In this document: positions 13,803 to 63,331 of the stretch, in pieces | How the letters are laid out: every line of letters starts with the position of its first letter | Position numbering within the stretch: position 1 is the stretch's first letter | DNA from: Pseudomonadota bacterium | GTDB lineage: Bacteria > Bdellovibrionota > UBA1018 > CAIMNF01 | Assembly (NCBI GenBank): GCA_027486675.1 | Contig: JAIXOQ010000003.1 | Location: 1-64,000 of the forward strand | Direction of reading: 5' to 3' | Length of the DNA stretch: 64,000 bases | Notes under the pieces: generated by a model | Databases searched by the model: none | Told to the model about the DNA's origin: nothing | Seen by the model: only the letters and a program-made list of their open reading frames with translations | Program-made: the position numbers and the translations under genes

Positions 13803-13878
13803 TGGCAGGCCGGGAGGGATTCGAACCCACAACCCGCGGATTTGGAATCCGCTGCTCTACCGTTGGAGCTACCGACCT
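13803..13878 (-). tRNA. tRNA-Trp (anticodon CCA)
   Basis: The 76-nt cloverleaf has acceptor AGGTCGG pairing CCGGCCT, anticodon loop TTCCAAA and a TTCGAAT T-loop, with CCA encoded (13803-13805). It sits between tuf and secE, the conserved position of trpT. Confidence 0.96.
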
Positions 13879-13880
13879 CC

Positions 13881-13922
13881 AAAAGAGAGGCCGGGGCGGA
13901 GAAACTCTCCAGCACCGGCCTC
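13881..13922 (-). terminator. terminator-like hairpin between tuf and tRNA-Trp
   Basis: On the minus strand GAGGCCGG pairs with CCGGCCTC, with an inner GGAGA-TCTCC helix, followed by TCTTTT directly before tRNA-Trp. It should reduce read-through from the highly expressed tuf gene into secE-nusG, or serve as a processing site. Confidence 0.7.
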
Positions 13923-13942
13923 CAAAAATCTAAGTTTCAGAG

Positions 13943-15133
13943 TTACTCGATGATTTCCGAAACAACACCTGCGCCTACAGTTCTGCCGCCCTCACGGATA
14001 GCAAAACGTAGTTCCTTTTCCATCGCGATAGGAGTGATGAGTTCAACTTCCATCGAAATGTTGTCCCCAGGCATTACCATTTCTACGTTCTCTGGAAGAG
14101 TGACAACACCAGTCACGTCCGTTGTACGGAAGTAAAACTGTGGGCGATAACCTTTAAAGAATGGAGTGTGACGGCCACCTTCCTCTTTTGTGAGGATGTA
14201 AGCAGCACCTTTGAATTTTTTGTGCGGAGTGATCGAACCTGGCTTCGCAAGAACTTGGCCACGTTCCACGTCTTCTTTTTTAGTACCACGAAGAAGTGCG
14301 CCGATGTTGTCGCCAGCTTCGCCGGAATCCAACAACTTACGGAACATCTCAATCCCGGTAACGACAGTTTTTGTCGTTGGGCGAAGACCGATGATTTCGA
14401 TCTCATCATTGACACGCAGAACGCCGCGCTCAATACGGCCTGTAACAACGGTTCCACGACCAGAGATCGAGAAAACGTCTTCAACCGGCATCAAGAATGG
14501 ACGATCCAAAGCACGAGTTGGCTGTGGGATCGCTGCGTCTACTGCGTCCATAAGCTTCATGATTGCTTTTTCGCCAAGATCACCAGCATCACCTTCGGAA
14601 GCTTTCAAAGCTGAACCGCGGATGAATGGGATTGTGTCTGCAGGGAAACTGTATTTTTTCAGAAGATCTTTCACTTCTTCTTCGACGAGCTCGATCAGAT
14701 CCGGGTCATCGACCATGTCGCACTTGTTCAAGAAAACAACAATCGCTGGAACACCGACTTGGCGAGCAAGAAGAATGTGTTCACGTGTTTGCGGCATTGG
14801 ACCGTCTGCTGCAGAAACAACAAGAATAGCGCCGTCCATTTGAGCAGCACCTGTGATCATGTTCTTCACATAGTCAGCGTGACCAGGACAGTCCACGTGA
14901 GCGTAGTGACGTTTTTCAGTCTCGTACTCAACGTGCGTTGTATTGATCGTAATCCCGCGCTCTTTTTCTTCTGGGGATTTATCAATGCTCGCATAGTCCA
15001 TGGCTTTTGCGCGGCCTGCTTTAGCTAAAACTTTCGTAATCGCAGAAGTCAGCGTTGTTTTTCCGTGATCGACGTGGCCGATCGTTCCAATGTTGCAATG
15101 GGGCTTATTCCGCTCAAACTTTTCTTTCGACAT
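13943..15133 (-). CDS. tuf: elongation factor Tu
   Basis: EF-Tu delivers aminoacyl-tRNA to the ribosome. The 396-residue product begins [20 protein letters not shown]. It carries the G1 motif GHVDHGKT, the switch segment ending [22 protein letters not shown], and NKCDMVDD, followed by domains 2 and 3. The start at 15133 is fixed by homology; the longer open frame upstream is untypical. It is framed by tRNA genes as in the E. coli tufB operon. Confidence 0.98.
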
Positions 15134-15299
15134 ATACCTACCATCCCTTTCCGATGACAAATTCCAGTGACAAAAAATGACGAACAATTTTTCCGACTCG
15201 CGATTTGGGTCGCGTTTCGGAATTTCACTCAAAACCAGCGAGAGAGTGATTCAGGGCCGAAGAATACACCAAACAGTGAACCAAATGCTATAGCCGAAG

Positions 15300-15374
<75 letters not shown>

Positions 15375-15416
15375 GCTACCACTTTCGTTAACTAACACAA
15401 TCCACTCTGTTTAAAG

Positions 15417-15493
15417 TGGAGCGGGAGACGGGTCTCGAACCCGCAACCCTCAGCTTGGAAGGCTGATACTCTAGCCAATTGAGCTACTCCCGC
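15417..15493 (-). tRNA. tRNA-Gly (anticodon TCC)
   Basis: The 77-nt cloverleaf has acceptor GCGGGAG, anticodon loop CTTCCAA and encoded CCA (15417-15419). Confidence 0.95.
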
Positions 15494-15505
15494 CCGACAA
15501 AATAA

Positions 15506-15591
15506 TGGTGGAGAGGGAAGGAATCGAACCTTCGAAGGCTGACGCCGCCAGATTTACAGTCTGGTCCGTTTGACCGCTCCGGAACCTCTCC
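15506..15591 (-). tRNA. tRNA-Tyr (anticodon GTA)
   Basis: This 86-nt class II tRNA has a long variable arm, acceptor GGAGAGG, anticodon loop CTGTAAA and encoded CCA (15506-15508). Confidence 0.95.
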
Positions 15592-15613
15592 ACACAAAAT
15601 ACCTAAAGAAACA

Positions 15614-15689
15614 TGGAGCTGAAGATCGGATTCGAACCGATGACCTGCTGTTTACAAAACAGCTGCTCTACCAACTGAGCTACTTCAGC
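15614..15689 (-). tRNA. tRNA-Thr (anticodon TGT)
   Basis: The 76-nt cloverleaf has acceptor GCTGAAG, anticodon loop TTTGTAA and encoded CCA (15614-15616). It is the first gene of the thr-tyr-gly-thr-tuf order known from E. coli. Confidence 0.95.
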
Positions 15690-55553: not shown

Positions 55554-55567
55554 AGGATTCACCCCAT

Positions 55568-55607
55568 AAAAAACGGTGCGGGAGGCTCCTGTATTAGGAC
55601 CTCCCGC
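55568..55607 (-). terminator. strong rho-independent terminator before the receiver gene
   Basis: GCGGGAGG pairs with CCTCCCGC, with TCCT-AGGA inside, followed by ACCG and TTTTTT. It ends a minus-strand transcript that comes from the gene-free region 55608-55857. Confidence 0.9.
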
Positions 55608-55857
55608 TCTAAATTTGCACCTTCGTGCTTTGATGTCGGGTCTTATACAACCCTTTGTTTTCTAAGTATTTATTGTATTTCCCGCTTCCATTGGACCTGG
55701 CCAGATCCAACCTTAAGCGGCTCATGAGTGCCGGGAGTACAACCCGGGTGGCTCATGCTAGGCGTCTCGTGGAGGCCCCGTCACCGCGTAACTCTTTTCA
55801 TGCCATCCTTTGAGGTTTCTGCTCACTGTTGCGTCTACTCTCATCAGCCCTCCCATG
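55608..55857 (-). ncRNA. candidate structured RNA or leader of unknown class
   Basis: The region has a plausible promoter on the minus strand (TTGACC, 17 bases, GATGAT, near 55860-55890) and a strong terminator at its end. In between lie hairpins: CATGAG..CTCATG enclosing CCGGG-CCCGG (about 55724-55757), and CCGCTT..AAGCGG enclosing TTGGA-TCCAA (about 55683-55722). A 28-codon ORF with GGAGG upstream (55758-55844) and a 38-codon ORF (55609-55725) are also present and could be translated. It matches no tmRNA, SRP RNA or RNase P motif I know; 6S-like or a new class are possible. Confidence 0.5.
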
Positions 55858-55883
55858 AAAAGATCATCTCAAATCCGATATAA

Positions 55884-56696: not shown

Positions 56697-58195
56697 AGCT
56701 CGCTCTCCTCCTATTTTATGTCCTTTTTCTATTCTTAGGCTGCGCGCTGATCCCCGCGTTTGATCTGGATGAAGCGCTCTATCAAAGTGTCGCGTCCCAT
56801 ATGAAACAAAGCGGTAACTGGTTCTTAATGCAGTGGAATGGCACACCGCTGTTTCATAAACCGCCCTTTTATTATTGGCTGATTGCACTTTCAAGTCTGT
56901 GCATCGACGGAGCTTCGGCGCCCGTCAGCACCTTCGCAGCAAGACTTCCATCCGCGATCGCAAGCCTACTCTTGCTATTCGTGCTCATAAAAACGCAAAC
57001 TCGCCAAACTCTACGTCCTGCATTCGGATTCCTACTTTTCACAGCTCCTCTGATTACAGCAGGCGCGATTCTGTTTGACCCCATCCAAAGCCTGCTGCTG
57101 GTTCTTTTCTTTCTTGCTTCCGAATCGTGGCTCAAGACCGGTCAAGTCCCTGCACTCAAGCGAGCGCTAGGACTTTCTGCGATTGTTGCCAGTGCTGCGC
57201 TTTTTAAGGGCCTCAATGGCTTTTTTATTCCGCTTGGATATGCGCTTGCGATGAGTGTCTTCCACATCACGATCCGCCAAGTAAGATCTTTGATTTTTGT
57301 CTTCGGCACTGCGGCTTTGATCACGGCGAGTGGTTATTTTTACTTAGACCAAACGTTGGGCCGCGCATTCACTCAGGAATTTTTCTTCGTTCATCATTTC
57401 GGGCGCGCATCCACTGCGATGGAAGGCCACGGCGGAGCCTGGTACTACTTCCCGCTGGTATTTATTTTAGGCTGCGGGCCAGCGCTTTATTTTTTAAGAC
57501 ACTTCACCCGGTCCCAGGGCCTATGGATTTTATCCGTGATTGGTTTCTTCTTCTTTTCAAAGACCTCACTGCCCCACTATGTCTGGCCTGCGTGGCCCGT
57601 GGCTGCACTTGCGGTGAATGAAGCCCGGACGCATCAAAAATATTTTCGTTTTGCGGCTGTACCGCCATTTGCTCTTGGATTTTTAGCAATCTTTTTAGCA
57701 TTTCCAGATGCTGCGGCTCGTTTGTCGGAATGGATCTCAAGCCCCTCAGCTCATGCCATCCTAACCGCCAGACCTGCGTTGACTGCTCCCCAGCAAAGTC
57801 TCTTTTTCTTAGGGGGCACTCTCCAGTTCTTGATCGGCGCACTGATGCTGAGTCAAAGAGCTCGGGTTCATAGTGTGGCTCTGTTGCATATCGCTAGCTT
57901 AGGAATGATCTTTTTCACAGGTGCAAAACACTACGATGATTGGACGCAGGCACCGCTTCAGCGTTTGGCTATTGCAGCGGAAAAATCTGCGGGCACCGAA
58001 GGCTGCATTCGATACGTTGGACCCACCTCGGCTGTGTTTTCATCCGCATTACAAGGCGGAAGAATGGTAAATAACTGTGTGACTGCGGATGCTCAGGCCT
58101 TGATTGTTCCTGAGTGGAAAAGCAAAGAGTGCGAGGAGTTTTCACTCACCCGCACTCTTCACGATTCTTATTTTTGGTTGTGTTTAAAACCTTAG
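56651..58195 (+). CDS. family 39 glycosyltransferase (ArnT-like)
   Basis: The 514-residue membrane protein has about ten helices and the acidic motif FDLDEALYQSVASHM near residue 40, then PPFYYWLIALSSL. It should transfer a sugar from polyprenyl phosphate to a periplasmic acceptor, such as lipid A. It overlaps the upstream donor synthase by 46 bases. The ATG at 56651 is chosen because the longer frame lies inside the upstream gene. The 3' end overlaps the histone gene by four bases. Confidence 0.88.
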   Translation: MASHPTSTSNQPRRVELALLLFYVLFLFLGCALIPAFDLDEALYQSVASHMKQSGNWFLMQWNGTPLFHKPPFYYWLIALSSLCIDGASAPVSTFAARLPSAIASLLLLFVLIKTQTRQTLRPAFGFLLFTAPLITAGAILFDPIQSLLLVLFFLASESWLKTGQVPALKRALGLSAIVASAALFKGLNGFFIPLGYALAMSVFHITIRQVRSLIFVFGTAALITASGYFYLDQTLGRAFTQEFFFVHHFGRASTAMEGHGGAWYYFPLVFILGCGPALYFLRHFTRSQGLWILSVIGFFFFSKTSLPHYVWPAWPVAALAVNEARTHQKYFRFAAVPPFALGFLAIFLAFPDAAARLSEWISSPSAHAILTARPALTAPQQSLFFLGGTLQFLIGALMLSQRARVHSVALLHIASLGMIFFTGAKHYDDWTQAPLQRLAIAAEKSAGTEGCIRYVGPTSAVFSSALQGGRMVNNCVTADAQALIVPEWKSKECEEFSLTRTLHDSYFWLCLKP

Positions 58196-58395
58196 TCGAA
58201 ATCACGATCCATGACGGTCTTACGGCCATCACGTTTCGCATTTTCGATCGCCTGATTGGTCATCGCACGGATTTTTTCGGACAGTGCTTCCACCACTGAT
58301 CCAGAGGTGTTGAAGCCAGACTGTGCACGGATGTAATTCTTCAATTTCGATGCAACGATCAGCACTTCTTTTTCGTTAGAACCTGCTTCGGTCAT
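58192..58395 (-). CDS. bacterial histone-fold protein (HBb-like)
   Basis: The 67-residue product is a single histone fold. VLIVASKLKNYIRAQSG forms helix 1, a long helix 2 follows (about residues 29-53), and the DGRKTVMDRD motif matches loop 2 and the start of helix 3 of archaeal histones and of the Bdellovibrio histone HBb (Bd0055). Helix 3 is very short, as in HBb, and there is no tail. It likely binds DNA as a dimer and shapes the nucleoid. AAGGAG lies seven bases upstream. It begins 10 bases after the diguanylate cyclase gene, in apparent operon with it. Confidence 0.85.
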   Translation of the reverse strand: MTEAGSNEKEVLIVASKLKNYIRAQSGFNTSGSVVEALSEKIRAMTNQAIENAKRDGRKTVMDRDFD

Positions 58396-58405
58396 TTCGT
58401 TCTCC

Positions 58406-60178
58406 TTAGACTTTCGGTCTCTTCTGTTCTTCAGAGACTACCTGAGCCGGAGCGGGAGGAACAGCGGCCAGACGGACCTGATTGCGACCGTCCTTTTTAG
58501 CCTGGTATAGAGCTTCATCGGCTAAGTTGAAAAGCTGCCTAGGATCATTGGAATGGAGGATGGTCTGGGCCACCCCAATGGAAAGCGTTACGGAAAGATT
58601 CGTTCCTTCATAGTTGAAGGTCTTGGATTCAACTAAACGGCGGAATTCTTCCAGTATCAGCACGGCCTCAGTGGCCTCGGTCCTTGGGAGGACAAAACAG
58701 AACTCTTCACCCCCGTAGCGGTACACATGGTCCGAGGTCCCTTGACGAGTGGTTTGTTCCATCAAAGCCCCGACCTGCTTGAGGATGAAATCTCCGGCCC
58801 TATGGCCGTGGTTGTCGTTGAACTTTTTGAAGAAATCGATGTCGACAATCCCTATGGTCAGCGGCGCATTTTCGATCGCAGCCTGAGTCACCATTTCGTA
58901 AAATGTATCTTCAAAGTAGCGCGCATTGTGCAACCCGGTTAAGCGGTCAGTGATCGAAGCGGAATAGAGTCTAGACTTGTTGAGACTGACTGCAGATTGA
59001 TCGGCAATCCCCTGCAATAAGGACACGTCTTCTTTTGTGAAGCGACCTAAGGTGTCAGAAACCGGCGTACCGTCTTCACGGAACTGCACTTTGTTAGTGA
59101 AGTTCATGACCCCTTCCAACTGGTTCCCGTTCATCACAGGAATAGAGCAAATACAAAATGTGTCGTAACCACCCATTTGCGGAATTTCGTCTCTATTGTT
59201 CACAACGATCGGTTTACGAATTAAAGCCGCCTGCCCGGCAATGCCTTCTCCGATTTCAAAACTTTTGGTTTCAATGCGGCCGGCGTTCACGGCATCCACG
59301 ATCGCACCATCGATGTGACCCCAAGCACGGGTGAGCTCCAGACGGTTAGTCGTTTTGTTGAGCAGCATCAGGTTCCCTTTTTGGGCCTTCACTGCCATAA
59401 CCGCGTTACGGATCGTTTCAAAACAAAGCTGTTTGTAGTCATTGATGTTGGCCAACTCTTGGTGAACATCGTAAAGAATTTGAATATTGCTCAAGATTCT
59501 CTGATTTTTTTCGTATTTCAGCGTTGAATCGATAATGGTGCTTGCGATGGATGCCAGTTCCTGGACAAAAGAATAATCGGCTTCTGTAACCTGACTACCG
59601 TCTCGTTTTTCGCCTAAAGTAAGGATCCCGATGACTTCGCCGGACTTAATCAGTGGGCACCAGAAGTCGGACCGCAAATAATCCAAAGCCGTCTTTTCCC
59701 AAGCTGTGACAAAGCGGGGTTCCTTTTGAAGATCACGCACACTGACGACGTTTCCTTGTTGAATAATGTTCCAAAGTAACCCGTTGTTTTGCTCTAAGCG
59801 GAAAAGATAAAGGGGTTCGCGGCGTCCGCGCTCGTCGACATAGAAATCATCTAAGCCATAGAATCGTTTCACCTGAAAAAATGTTTTTGAATTGCCTTCA
59901 GAATCTTCACGCAGTAGGACCGAGGAATTCACCACGTCGTACCGCTCACGCACAACCGCCATGAAGGTATCGAGCAACTGAGACAGATTCATGATGTTGC
60001 TGAGTCCCTTACCGGACTGAAGCAGGGCCTGCATTTCAAAAATCCTGATGTCTTGGGTGATCACGGTTTGTTTTAAGGTCTTGATCTCGCGCTTCAATGA
60101 ACGCATCAGATCGCCCTGACCCTCTGAAGAGGAGTCAGCAACCGTGGTTACATCAATAAGTTTCGGATCAATGGCCAT
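58406..60178 (-). CDS. diguanylate cyclase with GAF domains
   Basis: The product (590 residues from ATG 60178) makes cyclic di-GMP. It has a short coiled coil (about 25-60), two GAF-like sensory domains (about 65-215 and 225-385), and a C-terminal GGDEF domain starting ITDRLTGLHNARYFEDTFYE with active site YRYGGEEFCFVL. The inhibitory site upstream reads GTSD instead of RxxD, so product inhibition is probably lost. An ATG at 60190 and a more distal start exist. The next gene downstream, 10 bases away, encodes the histone. Confidence 0.92.
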   Translation of the reverse strand: MAIDPKLIDVTTVADSSSEGQGDLMRSLKREIKTLKQTVITQDIRIFEMQALLQSGKGLSNIMNLSQLLDTFMAVVRERYDVVNSSVLLREDSEGNSKTFFQVKRFYGLDDFYVDERGRREPLYLFRLEQNNGLLWNIIQQGNVVSVRDLQKEPRFVTAWEKTALDYLRSDFWCPLIKSGEVIGILTLGEKRDGSQVTEADYSFVQELASIASTIIDSTLKYEKNQRILSNIQILYDVHQELANINDYKQLCFETIRNAVMAVKAQKGNLMLLNKTTNRLELTRAWGHIDGAIVDAVNAGRIETKSFEIGEGIAGQAALIRKPIVVNNRDEIPQMGGYDTFCICSIPVMNGNQLEGVMNFTNKVQFREDGTPVSDTLGRFTKEDVSLLQGIADQSAVSLNKSRLYSASITDRLTGLHNARYFEDTFYEMVTQAAIENAPLTIGIVDIDFFKKFNDNHGHRAGDFILKQVGALMEQTTRQGTSDHVYRYGGEEFCFVLPRTEATEAVLILEEFRRLVESKTFNYEGTNLSVTLSIGVAQTILHSNDPRQLFNLADEALYQAKKDGRNQVRLAAVPPAPAQVVSEEQKRPKV

Positions 60179-60318
60179 AAACAGTTCCATCTCAGATATC
60201 GGCGGATGGGTGACCAAAGTTTAGTTTTATGGAGGCACCCACCTGGGGAGATCAACTATAGCAGTTTGACTATTGACGCCTAAACAACTAGATTGATTCA
60301 CTTCAAGGGGGCTCACGG

Positions 60319-62240: not shown

Positions 62241-62366
62241 CGATGGGCGCCCCTCTTTATCGGCAAACGGATGGCTTTCAGGTCTAAGAGAGCAAGAGGC
62301 ACGCCACCGTCTACCCCCCAGGGTTTCATTGTAGGCGAAAAGGAGGTGTCTAAACATTAGACAAAT

Positions 62367-62399
62367 GAAAAGGGCGCGAACCCATCGGATTCGCGCCCT
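62367..62399 (-). terminator. rho-independent terminator
   Basis: AGGGCGCGAA pairs with TTCGCGCCCT (10 bp) around a 9-nt loop, followed on the minus strand by TTTC. It lies 35 bases after the exported protein gene at 62435. Confidence 0.8.
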
Positions 62400-62434
62400 A
62401 AAATATCTGGAGGCCTATGAGATGCTTCCTGAAA

Positions 62435-63331
62435 CTAGATGCTGCAGTTCGCAGGCGCTGGCTTCATGGTGCCTTCGTCGGTAACGAAGTCTGCAGGATT
62501 GAAGCTACTTGGGGTCTTGCACTGTACGTGTCGTGTGTTCATGATCATTTTCGCTGATTTAATGTCGAACTTGAGTACGCTCTGTGTCGTGTTCAAGTAT
62601 GAACGAGCAAGCTTCCACTTTGCACAGTCCCCTCTATCGTATCTACGCACAGAAGTTTGACCTGCCACTGACTCTTCTGCGATGTTGATCAGGCCTGGCT
62701 CAGAGTACTTTGTAACTGCGCAGGTCTCTGGACCAACAAGGGTTTCACCTGTGGTTTCATAAACAATCTTGTTTGCAGATGCAATTCGAGTCACAGCTTG
62801 CTTGGAGGCCTCAGTTGGGTTCTCCATCATGATTGCGACTTCGCCTACAGTCACAGTTTGTCCTGTGAACTCAGGAGCTGCTGTTACTGCCGCTTCCTTT
62901 GTTGCCACTGGAGCTTCCGCTGTCACTGTCTTCACAAGGCTTGGACGAACCAATTTGTTGCTGCGTTCAGCTGTGCTTGAGCCAGCGGAAAACTTTGGAG
63001 CTGTTGTGCCAGAGCTCACTTGCACGGTTGGCACTGCGCCAGTTTGTGAGGTGGTGTATTGGGAGCCGCGCACCAAAGCGCCGGTTTCACTTGTTTTATA
63101 CTGTTTCTTTACATTGCCTGCTTCGACTTCACTCACGCGAGCACCTGCAGTGTTAAACTCTACAGGGCCGGTTTTTGTCGCAGCTCCAGGACCTTTCAAA
63201 GTGTTGATTCCGCTTTTAATGATCGCCGGTGCCTCTTTCGCAACTGTGACGACTTGCCCTGTTCCTTGTGCGAAACTCAATATGGGACTTACTACTAAAC
63301 TTGCTACTACTGCGATACTTACCTTCAACAT
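62435..63331 (-). CDS. exported protein of unknown function, low-complexity
   Basis: The 298-residue product has a signal peptide (MLKVSIAVVASLVVSPILSFAQ). A Thr-, Ala-, Val- and Ser-rich unstructured region follows (about 30-165), and then a C-terminal domain with four Cys that may form disulfides. GGAGG lies four bases before the ATG at 63331, and a terminator follows, so it is a monocistronic gene with its own expression. No family is recognised. Confidence 0.82.
   Translation of the reverse strand: MLKVSIAVVASLVVSPILSFAQGTGQVVTVAKEAPAIIKSGINTLKGPGAATKTGPVEFNTAGARVSEVEAGNVKKQYKTSETGALVRGSQYTTSQTGAVPTVQVSSGTTAPKFSAGSSTAERSNKLVRPSLVKTVTAEAPVATKEAAVTAAPEFTGQTVTVGEVAIMMENPTEASKQAVTRIASANKIVYETTGETLVGPETCAVTKYSEPGLINIAEESVAGQTSVRRYDRGDCAKWKLARSYLNTTQSVLKFDIKSAKMIMNTRHVQCKTPSSFNPADFVTDEGTMKPAPANCSI

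What the first reader, a model, noticed from the sequence alone, without database searches (positions are those of the whole stretch)
58192..60178. Histone-fold gene in apparent operon with a diguanylate cyclase
A 67-residue histone-fold protein with the DGRKTVMDRD motif starts 10 bases after a GAF-GGDEF protein. Histones in bacteria are known from Bdellovibrio HBb, but a shared transcript with a cyclic-di-GMP enzyme would link chromatin packing to the signal that controls the predatory/growth switch in that group. The pairing is seen here; the functional link is inference.
Basis: partly seen in the sequence, partly recalled or inferred. Interest (0 to 1): 0.82.

Follow-up and report, generated by a model that had tools for sequence, protein, structure and literature searches.

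The report
Lone bacterial histone behind cyclase gene
The gene is a real bacterial histone lying 10 bases behind a cyclic-di-GMP-making enzyme, but relatives show this close pairing arose when a zinc-finger domain and a small RNA gene were lost from between them, so it is not evidence that cyclic-di-GMP controls chromatin.

Summary
Observation confirmed. 58192-58395(-) encodes a 67-aa alpha3 histone of the HBb-like "bacterial dimer" type. It lies 10 nt behind a GAF-GAF-GGDEF gene, and its Shine-Dalgarno (SD) site overlaps that gene's stop codon. It is the only histone found in a 95%-complete genome. The predicted fold matches HBb, but its closest Bdellovibrio relative by sequence is the ZZ histone (60%), not HBb (46%).

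Interpretation only partly supported. The gene order is conserved in all 12 testable family genomes and was seen nowhere else. In the 11 sisters the genes are 277-1808 nt apart, with a sigma54-box, terminator-ended small RNA between them and in some a marC gene. The tight pair is therefore derived. Here co-transcription is likely, from a FliA-type promoter (60197-60223), but no histone-c-di-GMP link is shown.

By-product: in most sisters the histone is fused in frame to an N-terminal ZZ zinc finger. The fusion starts at a weak GTG, and an internal ATG with an SD-like site could yield a free histone. The ZZ part was lost at least twice, probably three times, each time keeping that start. One gene may make two histones.

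The parts
58192..58395 (-). alpha3 'bacterial dimer'-type histone, 67 aa, the only histone found in the genome
58396..58405 (-). 10-nt intergenic gap; SD AAGGAG at 58402-58407 overlaps the cyclase stop (duplex energy -9.1 kcal/mol)
58406..60217 (-).
   Evidence: the start is inferred from alignment with relatives beginning near residue 17
60197..60223 (-). FliA (sigma28)-type promoter TAAAC-N16-CCGATA just upstream of the likely cyclase start
   Evidence: only match to TWAA-N17-CCGATA in the window, 0.13 expected; similar N16/17-CCGA sites in all 12 family genomes, individually modest; FliA present in the genome; consensus TTAAG-N16-CCGATA from PMC3627812
56594..58195 (+). convergent gene, membrane glycosyltransferase-like by sequence, stop overlapping the histone stop by 4 nt; a similar gene lies on this side in relatives
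   Evidence: no Pfam hit, so the glycosyltransferase label is from reading the sequence

Best explanation
A stand-alone alpha3 histone of the dimeric, DNA-bending HBb kind, the only histone gene found in this uncultured Bdellovibrionota genome, is the second gene of a two-gene unit behind a GAF-GAF-GGDEF cyclase. The tight pairing is derived. In the sisters, and so probably in the ancestor, the same order holds, but a sigma54-type small RNA with its own terminator, in some lineages a marC gene, and an in-frame ZZ zinc-finger extension of the histone lie between. Here these are gone, so the histone is probably made from the cyclase transcript, starting at a FliA-type promoter. Shown: fold, sequence class, spacing, SD, gene order in relatives, terminator and small-RNA sequence in relatives, no ZZ found in this genome. 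Inferred: co-transcription, promoter use, DNA bending, direction of the deletion. No regulatory link between c-di-GMP and the histone is shown.
For: Histone identity. Only histone found. Cyclase ortholog (66-73%) upstream and same strand in 12 of 12 testable family genomes, found in no other family at 1e-90; no related histone outside the family had it nearby. Gaps of 277-1808 nt in sisters and the terminator-ended RNA. No ZZ and no small-RNA match in this genome. ZZ losses mapped on the cyclase tree. FliA-type promoter.
Against: No transcript data. The genome is 95.3% complete, so a second histone or the small RNA could be in the missing part. The small-RNA search of this genome used strict filters plus one exact pattern. 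An internal promoter in the cyclase 3' end is not excluded (best sigma70 site 8 of 12 bases). The order cyclase-histone is kept in all family genomes, so some selection on it cannot be excluded, although flanking genes are kept as well. The window's genome is the sister of the rest on the cyclase tree (midpoint root), so loss in this genome rather than gain in the sisters is likely but not proven.
Confidence: 0.7

Rival explanations
1. One reading: the pair is a functional operon in which c-di-GMP synthesis and chromatin packing are co-controlled to run the predatory/growth switch.
For: 10-nt gap with the SD overlapping the stop; order and strand conserved in 12 of 12 family genomes; FliA-type promoter upstream, FliA being the attack-phase regulator in B. 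bacteriovorus (PMC3627812).
Against: Terminator-ended small RNA between the genes in sisters; pairing not found next to related histones outside the family nor in B. bacteriovorus; flanking genes are syntenic as well, so proximity is not specific.
Confidence: 0.12
2. The histone has its own promoter inside the cyclase gene and the 10-nt spacing is without consequence.
For: Histones and other nucleoid proteins are usually single-gene units (PMC11390915); sisters appear to have a separate unit.
Against: No strong sigma70 site in the last 200 nt of the cyclase gene and none on the minus strand in the scan; consensus scans are weak evidence in this phylum.
Confidence: 0.25
3. The histone is the ortholog of the essential Bdellovibrio HBb.
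For: HBb is the best structure match and the best PDB sequence match.
Against: In B. bacteriovorus kdesi the closest sequence is the histone domain of the ZZ histone (60%), HBb only 46%; sisters carry a ZZ extension on the same gene. The histone tree is too short to resolve.
Confidence: 0.15

Closest known systems
HBb (Bd0055), bacterial dimer histone of Bdellovibrio bacteriovorus (8cmp, 8fvx, 9ezz)
   Same: One short histone fold with truncated third helix, RxTxxxxD motif, lysines of helix 1, no FtF residues R48/N52
   Different: About 46% identical; HBb has a second (ZZ) histone beside it in the genome; no GGDEF hit near HBb in the kdesi genome
ZZ histone of Bdellovibrio (Bd3044 type; L143)
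   Same: Closest histone domain by sequence in B. bacteriovorus (60%)
   Different: The window gene has no ZZ domain; the Bdellovibrio gene has a good ATG/SD start for the long form and no internal ATG at the histone start
HLp of Leptospira perolatii (9qt0), face-to-face histone
   Same: alpha3 histone fold
   Different: FtF interface residues R48 and N52 are N and D here (read from the alignment)
6C RNA (RF01066), compared with the small RNA between the genes in sisters
   Same: Two hairpins with C-rich loops
   Different: 23.4 bits against a gathering score of 47; terminator-ended, sigma54 promoter box

Membership tests
alpha3 bacterial dimer histone | Single histone fold with third helix of 3-4 residues | tested here: met
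   helices 4-26, 34-56, 63-66; mean pLDDT 80; HBb best in PDB
alpha3 bacterial dimer histone | RxTxxxxD / RKT motif after helix 2 | tested here: met
   R58 K59 T60 ... D65; R, K, T and D65 invariant in 30 relatives
alpha3 bacterial dimer histone | Lacks the FtF residues R48 and N52 | tested here: met
   N and D at these places in the alignment to HLp (feature from PMC11390915); the placing of R48/N52 on HLp is my reading
alpha3 bacterial dimer histone | Dimer in solution, bends DNA | not testable with these tools
   only a monomer model was made
ZZ histone | N-terminal ZZ zinc finger (C4 + C2H2) | tested here: not met
   absent from the gene and not found in the genome; present on the same gene in 8 sister genomes
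face-to-face histone | R48/N52 dimer-dimer contacts, tetramer | tested here: not met
   alignment; tetramer not testable
active diguanylate cyclase | GG(D/E)EF active site | tested here: met
   RYGGEEF in P0002; PF00990 E 1.8e-39
active diguanylate cyclase | RxxD product-inhibition site (optional feature) | tested here: not met
   GTSD at that place in P0002
6C RNA (for the sisters' small RNA) | Rfam RF01066 gathering score | tested here: not met
   23.4 against 47 bits; no RF01066 match at E 0.5 or better in seven further loci

The most novel reading that the evidence does not exclude
In this family one gene makes two histones: a ZZ zinc-finger histone from a weak GTG start, and a free histone from a conserved internal ATG with a better SD site. 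In the window's lineage the ZZ part and an intervening sigma54-controlled C-loop small RNA were lost. The cell's only histone then came under the FliA-type promoter of a diguanylate cyclase, so that histone supply follows the motile-phase programme.
Probability: 0.35. Interest if true: 0.65.

Novelty: new variant of a known kind. Interest (0 to 1): 0.45.

Why it matters
Bacterial histones are a recent field, and alpha3 histones are described as single-gene units (PMC11390915). A genome whose only detected histone sits in a two-gene unit with a cyclase, behind a motility-type promoter, is an odd variant and gives a clear test of when histone is made. The family comparison also points to a dual-start ZZ/free histone gene, one possible way for a cell with a single histone gene to have both forms, and to an uncatalogued sigma54-linked small-RNA family. 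The c-di-GMP-chromatin link itself is not supported by the comparison.

Tried and rejected
Small RNA as merRNA or a c-di-GMP riboswitch: no Rfam match at gathering score in 8 relatives' loci apart from tRNAs, and the best low hit over the element is 6C, below its gathering score. Weak R1 hit in the window at 62362-62436: no C-rich loops, only a terminator hairpin, rejected. Histone tree: 57 columns, mostly unresolved, not used. Histone in phage records: no match. sigma70 scans over the pair: at chance level. Kinship search centred on B. bacteriovorus: not accepted; its genome was searched directly instead. Gain of ZZ in the sisters instead of loss was considered; ZZ proteins of the same type are widespread in the order as stand-alone genes, so loss is favoured for G004 and for the G001/G003/G009 group and is likely, not proven, for the window's genome. 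A rule that every fused gene with the W-type ZZ domain has the internal ATG was dropped: L120 lacks it.

Full report
What is there. On the minus strand, 58406-60217 encodes two GAF domains and a GGDEF domain, with the active-site GGEEF and without the RxxD inhibitory site. Ten nucleotides on, 58192-58395 encodes a 67-residue protein. It passes the Pfam histone cut-off, matches solved HBb at 9.9e-11 and HLp at 4.8e-10, and is predicted as two long helices plus a four-residue third helix, with HBb as best PDB match at probability 1.00. The SD AAGGAG overlaps the cyclase stop.

Which histone. It has the bacterial-dimer signature: truncated third helix, RxTxxxxD, and no FtF residues R48/N52 (alignment; definitions from PMC11390915). 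It is the only histone found in the genome (95.3% complete). In B. bacteriovorus kdesi the closest sequence is the histone domain of the ZZ histone (60%), HBb being 46%. A tree of the short domain is unresolved. The named relatives in the same family are mostly MAGs labelled Bdellovibrionales or Oligoflexia.

Is the pair conserved? The cyclase ortholog (66-73% identity) lies upstream of the histone on the same strand in all 12 testable family genomes, the window's included. It was not found outside the family at 1e-90 (a diverged ortholog is not excluded). Among 80 related histone loci, only family members had it nearby; two others had an unrelated GGDEF gene within 8 kb. In B. bacteriovorus the GGDEF hits are 290 kb or more from either histone. 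Neighbours in the family (a metallophosphoesterase/5'-nucleotidase, OsmC, a glycosyltransferase-like gene, a GT2) are also kept in sisters, so the conservation is that of a block. The 10-nt spacing is seen only in this genome; sisters have 277-1808 nt, with a MarC gene between in some.

What lies between in the sisters. All 11 sisters tested have, between the genes, a block of about 90 nt: a hairpin (GTGCC/GGCAC in most) with a C-rich loop, a second hairpin with a C-rich loop followed by a T-run, and a sigma54 -24/-12 box TGGCAY-N5-TTGC at near-constant distance upstream. The box was found 12 times in 301,666 nt of family loci (both strands) and at this place in all 11 sisters. The second stem covaries across 17 genomes, including six from another family where the RNA lies on other contigs than the histone. 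It scores 23.4 bits against 6C RNA, below the gathering score of 47, so it is 6C-like, not a member. A terminator of this strength between cyclase and histone makes separate transcription units likely in the sisters. In the window's genome no match was found, although RpoN is present.

ZZ extension and the internal start. In 8 sisters the histone frame continues upstream into a ZZ-type zinc finger (C10, C13, C26, C31, C41, C45, H49, H55, against C10, C13, C26, C31, C41, C43, H49, H55 of the published ZZ-histone profile, PMC11390915). All 8 long forms have GTG as the best start candidate, with a weak SD (median duplex energy -2.05), while an in-frame ATG at the histone start has a better one in most. 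Five further fused genes from other lineages have such an ATG too. Grouping by ZZ type, which I did after seeing the data, 13 of 14 fused genes with the CWD-type ZZ domain have the ATG (L120 does not), against 0 of 8 Bdellovibrio-type ZZ histones (Fisher 2.8e-5, not corrected for kinship). SD energies of 11 representatives are lower than those of 408 control internal ATGs (median -7.1 against -2.4, p 2.8e-7; related sequences, so rough). No second histone was found in the 12 fused-gene genomes that have the ATG, some of them incomplete, whereas most Bdellovibrio-type ZZ histones read here coexist with a separate free histone. On the cyclase tree ZZ was lost in G004 and in the G001/G003/G009 ancestor (both nested among ZZ carriers) and probably in the window's genome, each time keeping the short form with its start. 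This supports, but does not prove, that the internal start is used.

How this genome probably expresses the histone. Upstream of the cyclase is TAAAC-N16-CCGATA (60197-60223, minus strand), the only such site in the window (0.13 expected); FliA is encoded; N16/17-CCGA sites lie upstream in all 12 family genomes, though individually modest. In B. bacteriovorus TTAAG-N16-CCGATA is the attack-phase FliA site (PMC3627812). No good sigma70 site precedes the histone. So the likeliest reading is a FliA-driven two-gene transcript created by deletion. Whether this organism is a predator is unknown.

Verdict. The pair is real and probably co-transcribed here, but the comparison gives no support for a conserved c-di-GMP-chromatin circuit. 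The dual-start ZZ gene and the small RNA are the more durable observations.

Noticed in passing
L054:6980-7065 (+), and 16 more genomes: Terminator-ended small RNA with two C-rich-loop hairpins and a sigma54 promoter box at near-constant spacing; covarying second stem; not in Rfam at gathering score. In family sisters it lies between the cyclase and the histone; in six other-family genomes it lies on other contigs.
   Followed up: partly
L083:4633-5178 (+) with internal ATG 4981; same in L073, L076, L077, L079, L081, L082, L094, L086, L092, L148, L146, L172: ZZ-histone genes with an internal ATG and SD-like site at the histone start, and (in the eight family members) a weak GTG start for the long form; candidate dual-product genes.
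   Followed up: partly
L054:10510-10596, L055:10648-10735, L062:10066-10150, L056:10633-10717, L058:2001-2094 (-), L059:7207-7295: A second conserved C-rich, terminator-ended RNA near the GT2 glycosyltransferase gene in sisters, with no Rfam match at gathering score in the loci scanned.
   Followed up: no
L182 (G021:C164): A ZZ-histone gene with an in-frame TAA inside the histone domain; assembly error or pseudogene not decided.
   Followed up: no
window 55563-55883: Intergenic stretch between a response-regulator gene and GT2 that holds a strong hairpin with T-run on the minus strand; might hold an RNA gene, no Rfam match at gathering score.
   Followed up: no
window 13806-15689: Cluster of five tRNA genes on the minus strand; a sixth lies at 1950-2022.
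   Followed up: no
L153-L168: Stand-alone ZZ-type zinc-finger proteins (108-169 codons stop to stop) across the order, in genomes whose histone lies elsewhere; possible partners of the free histone.
   Followed up: partly
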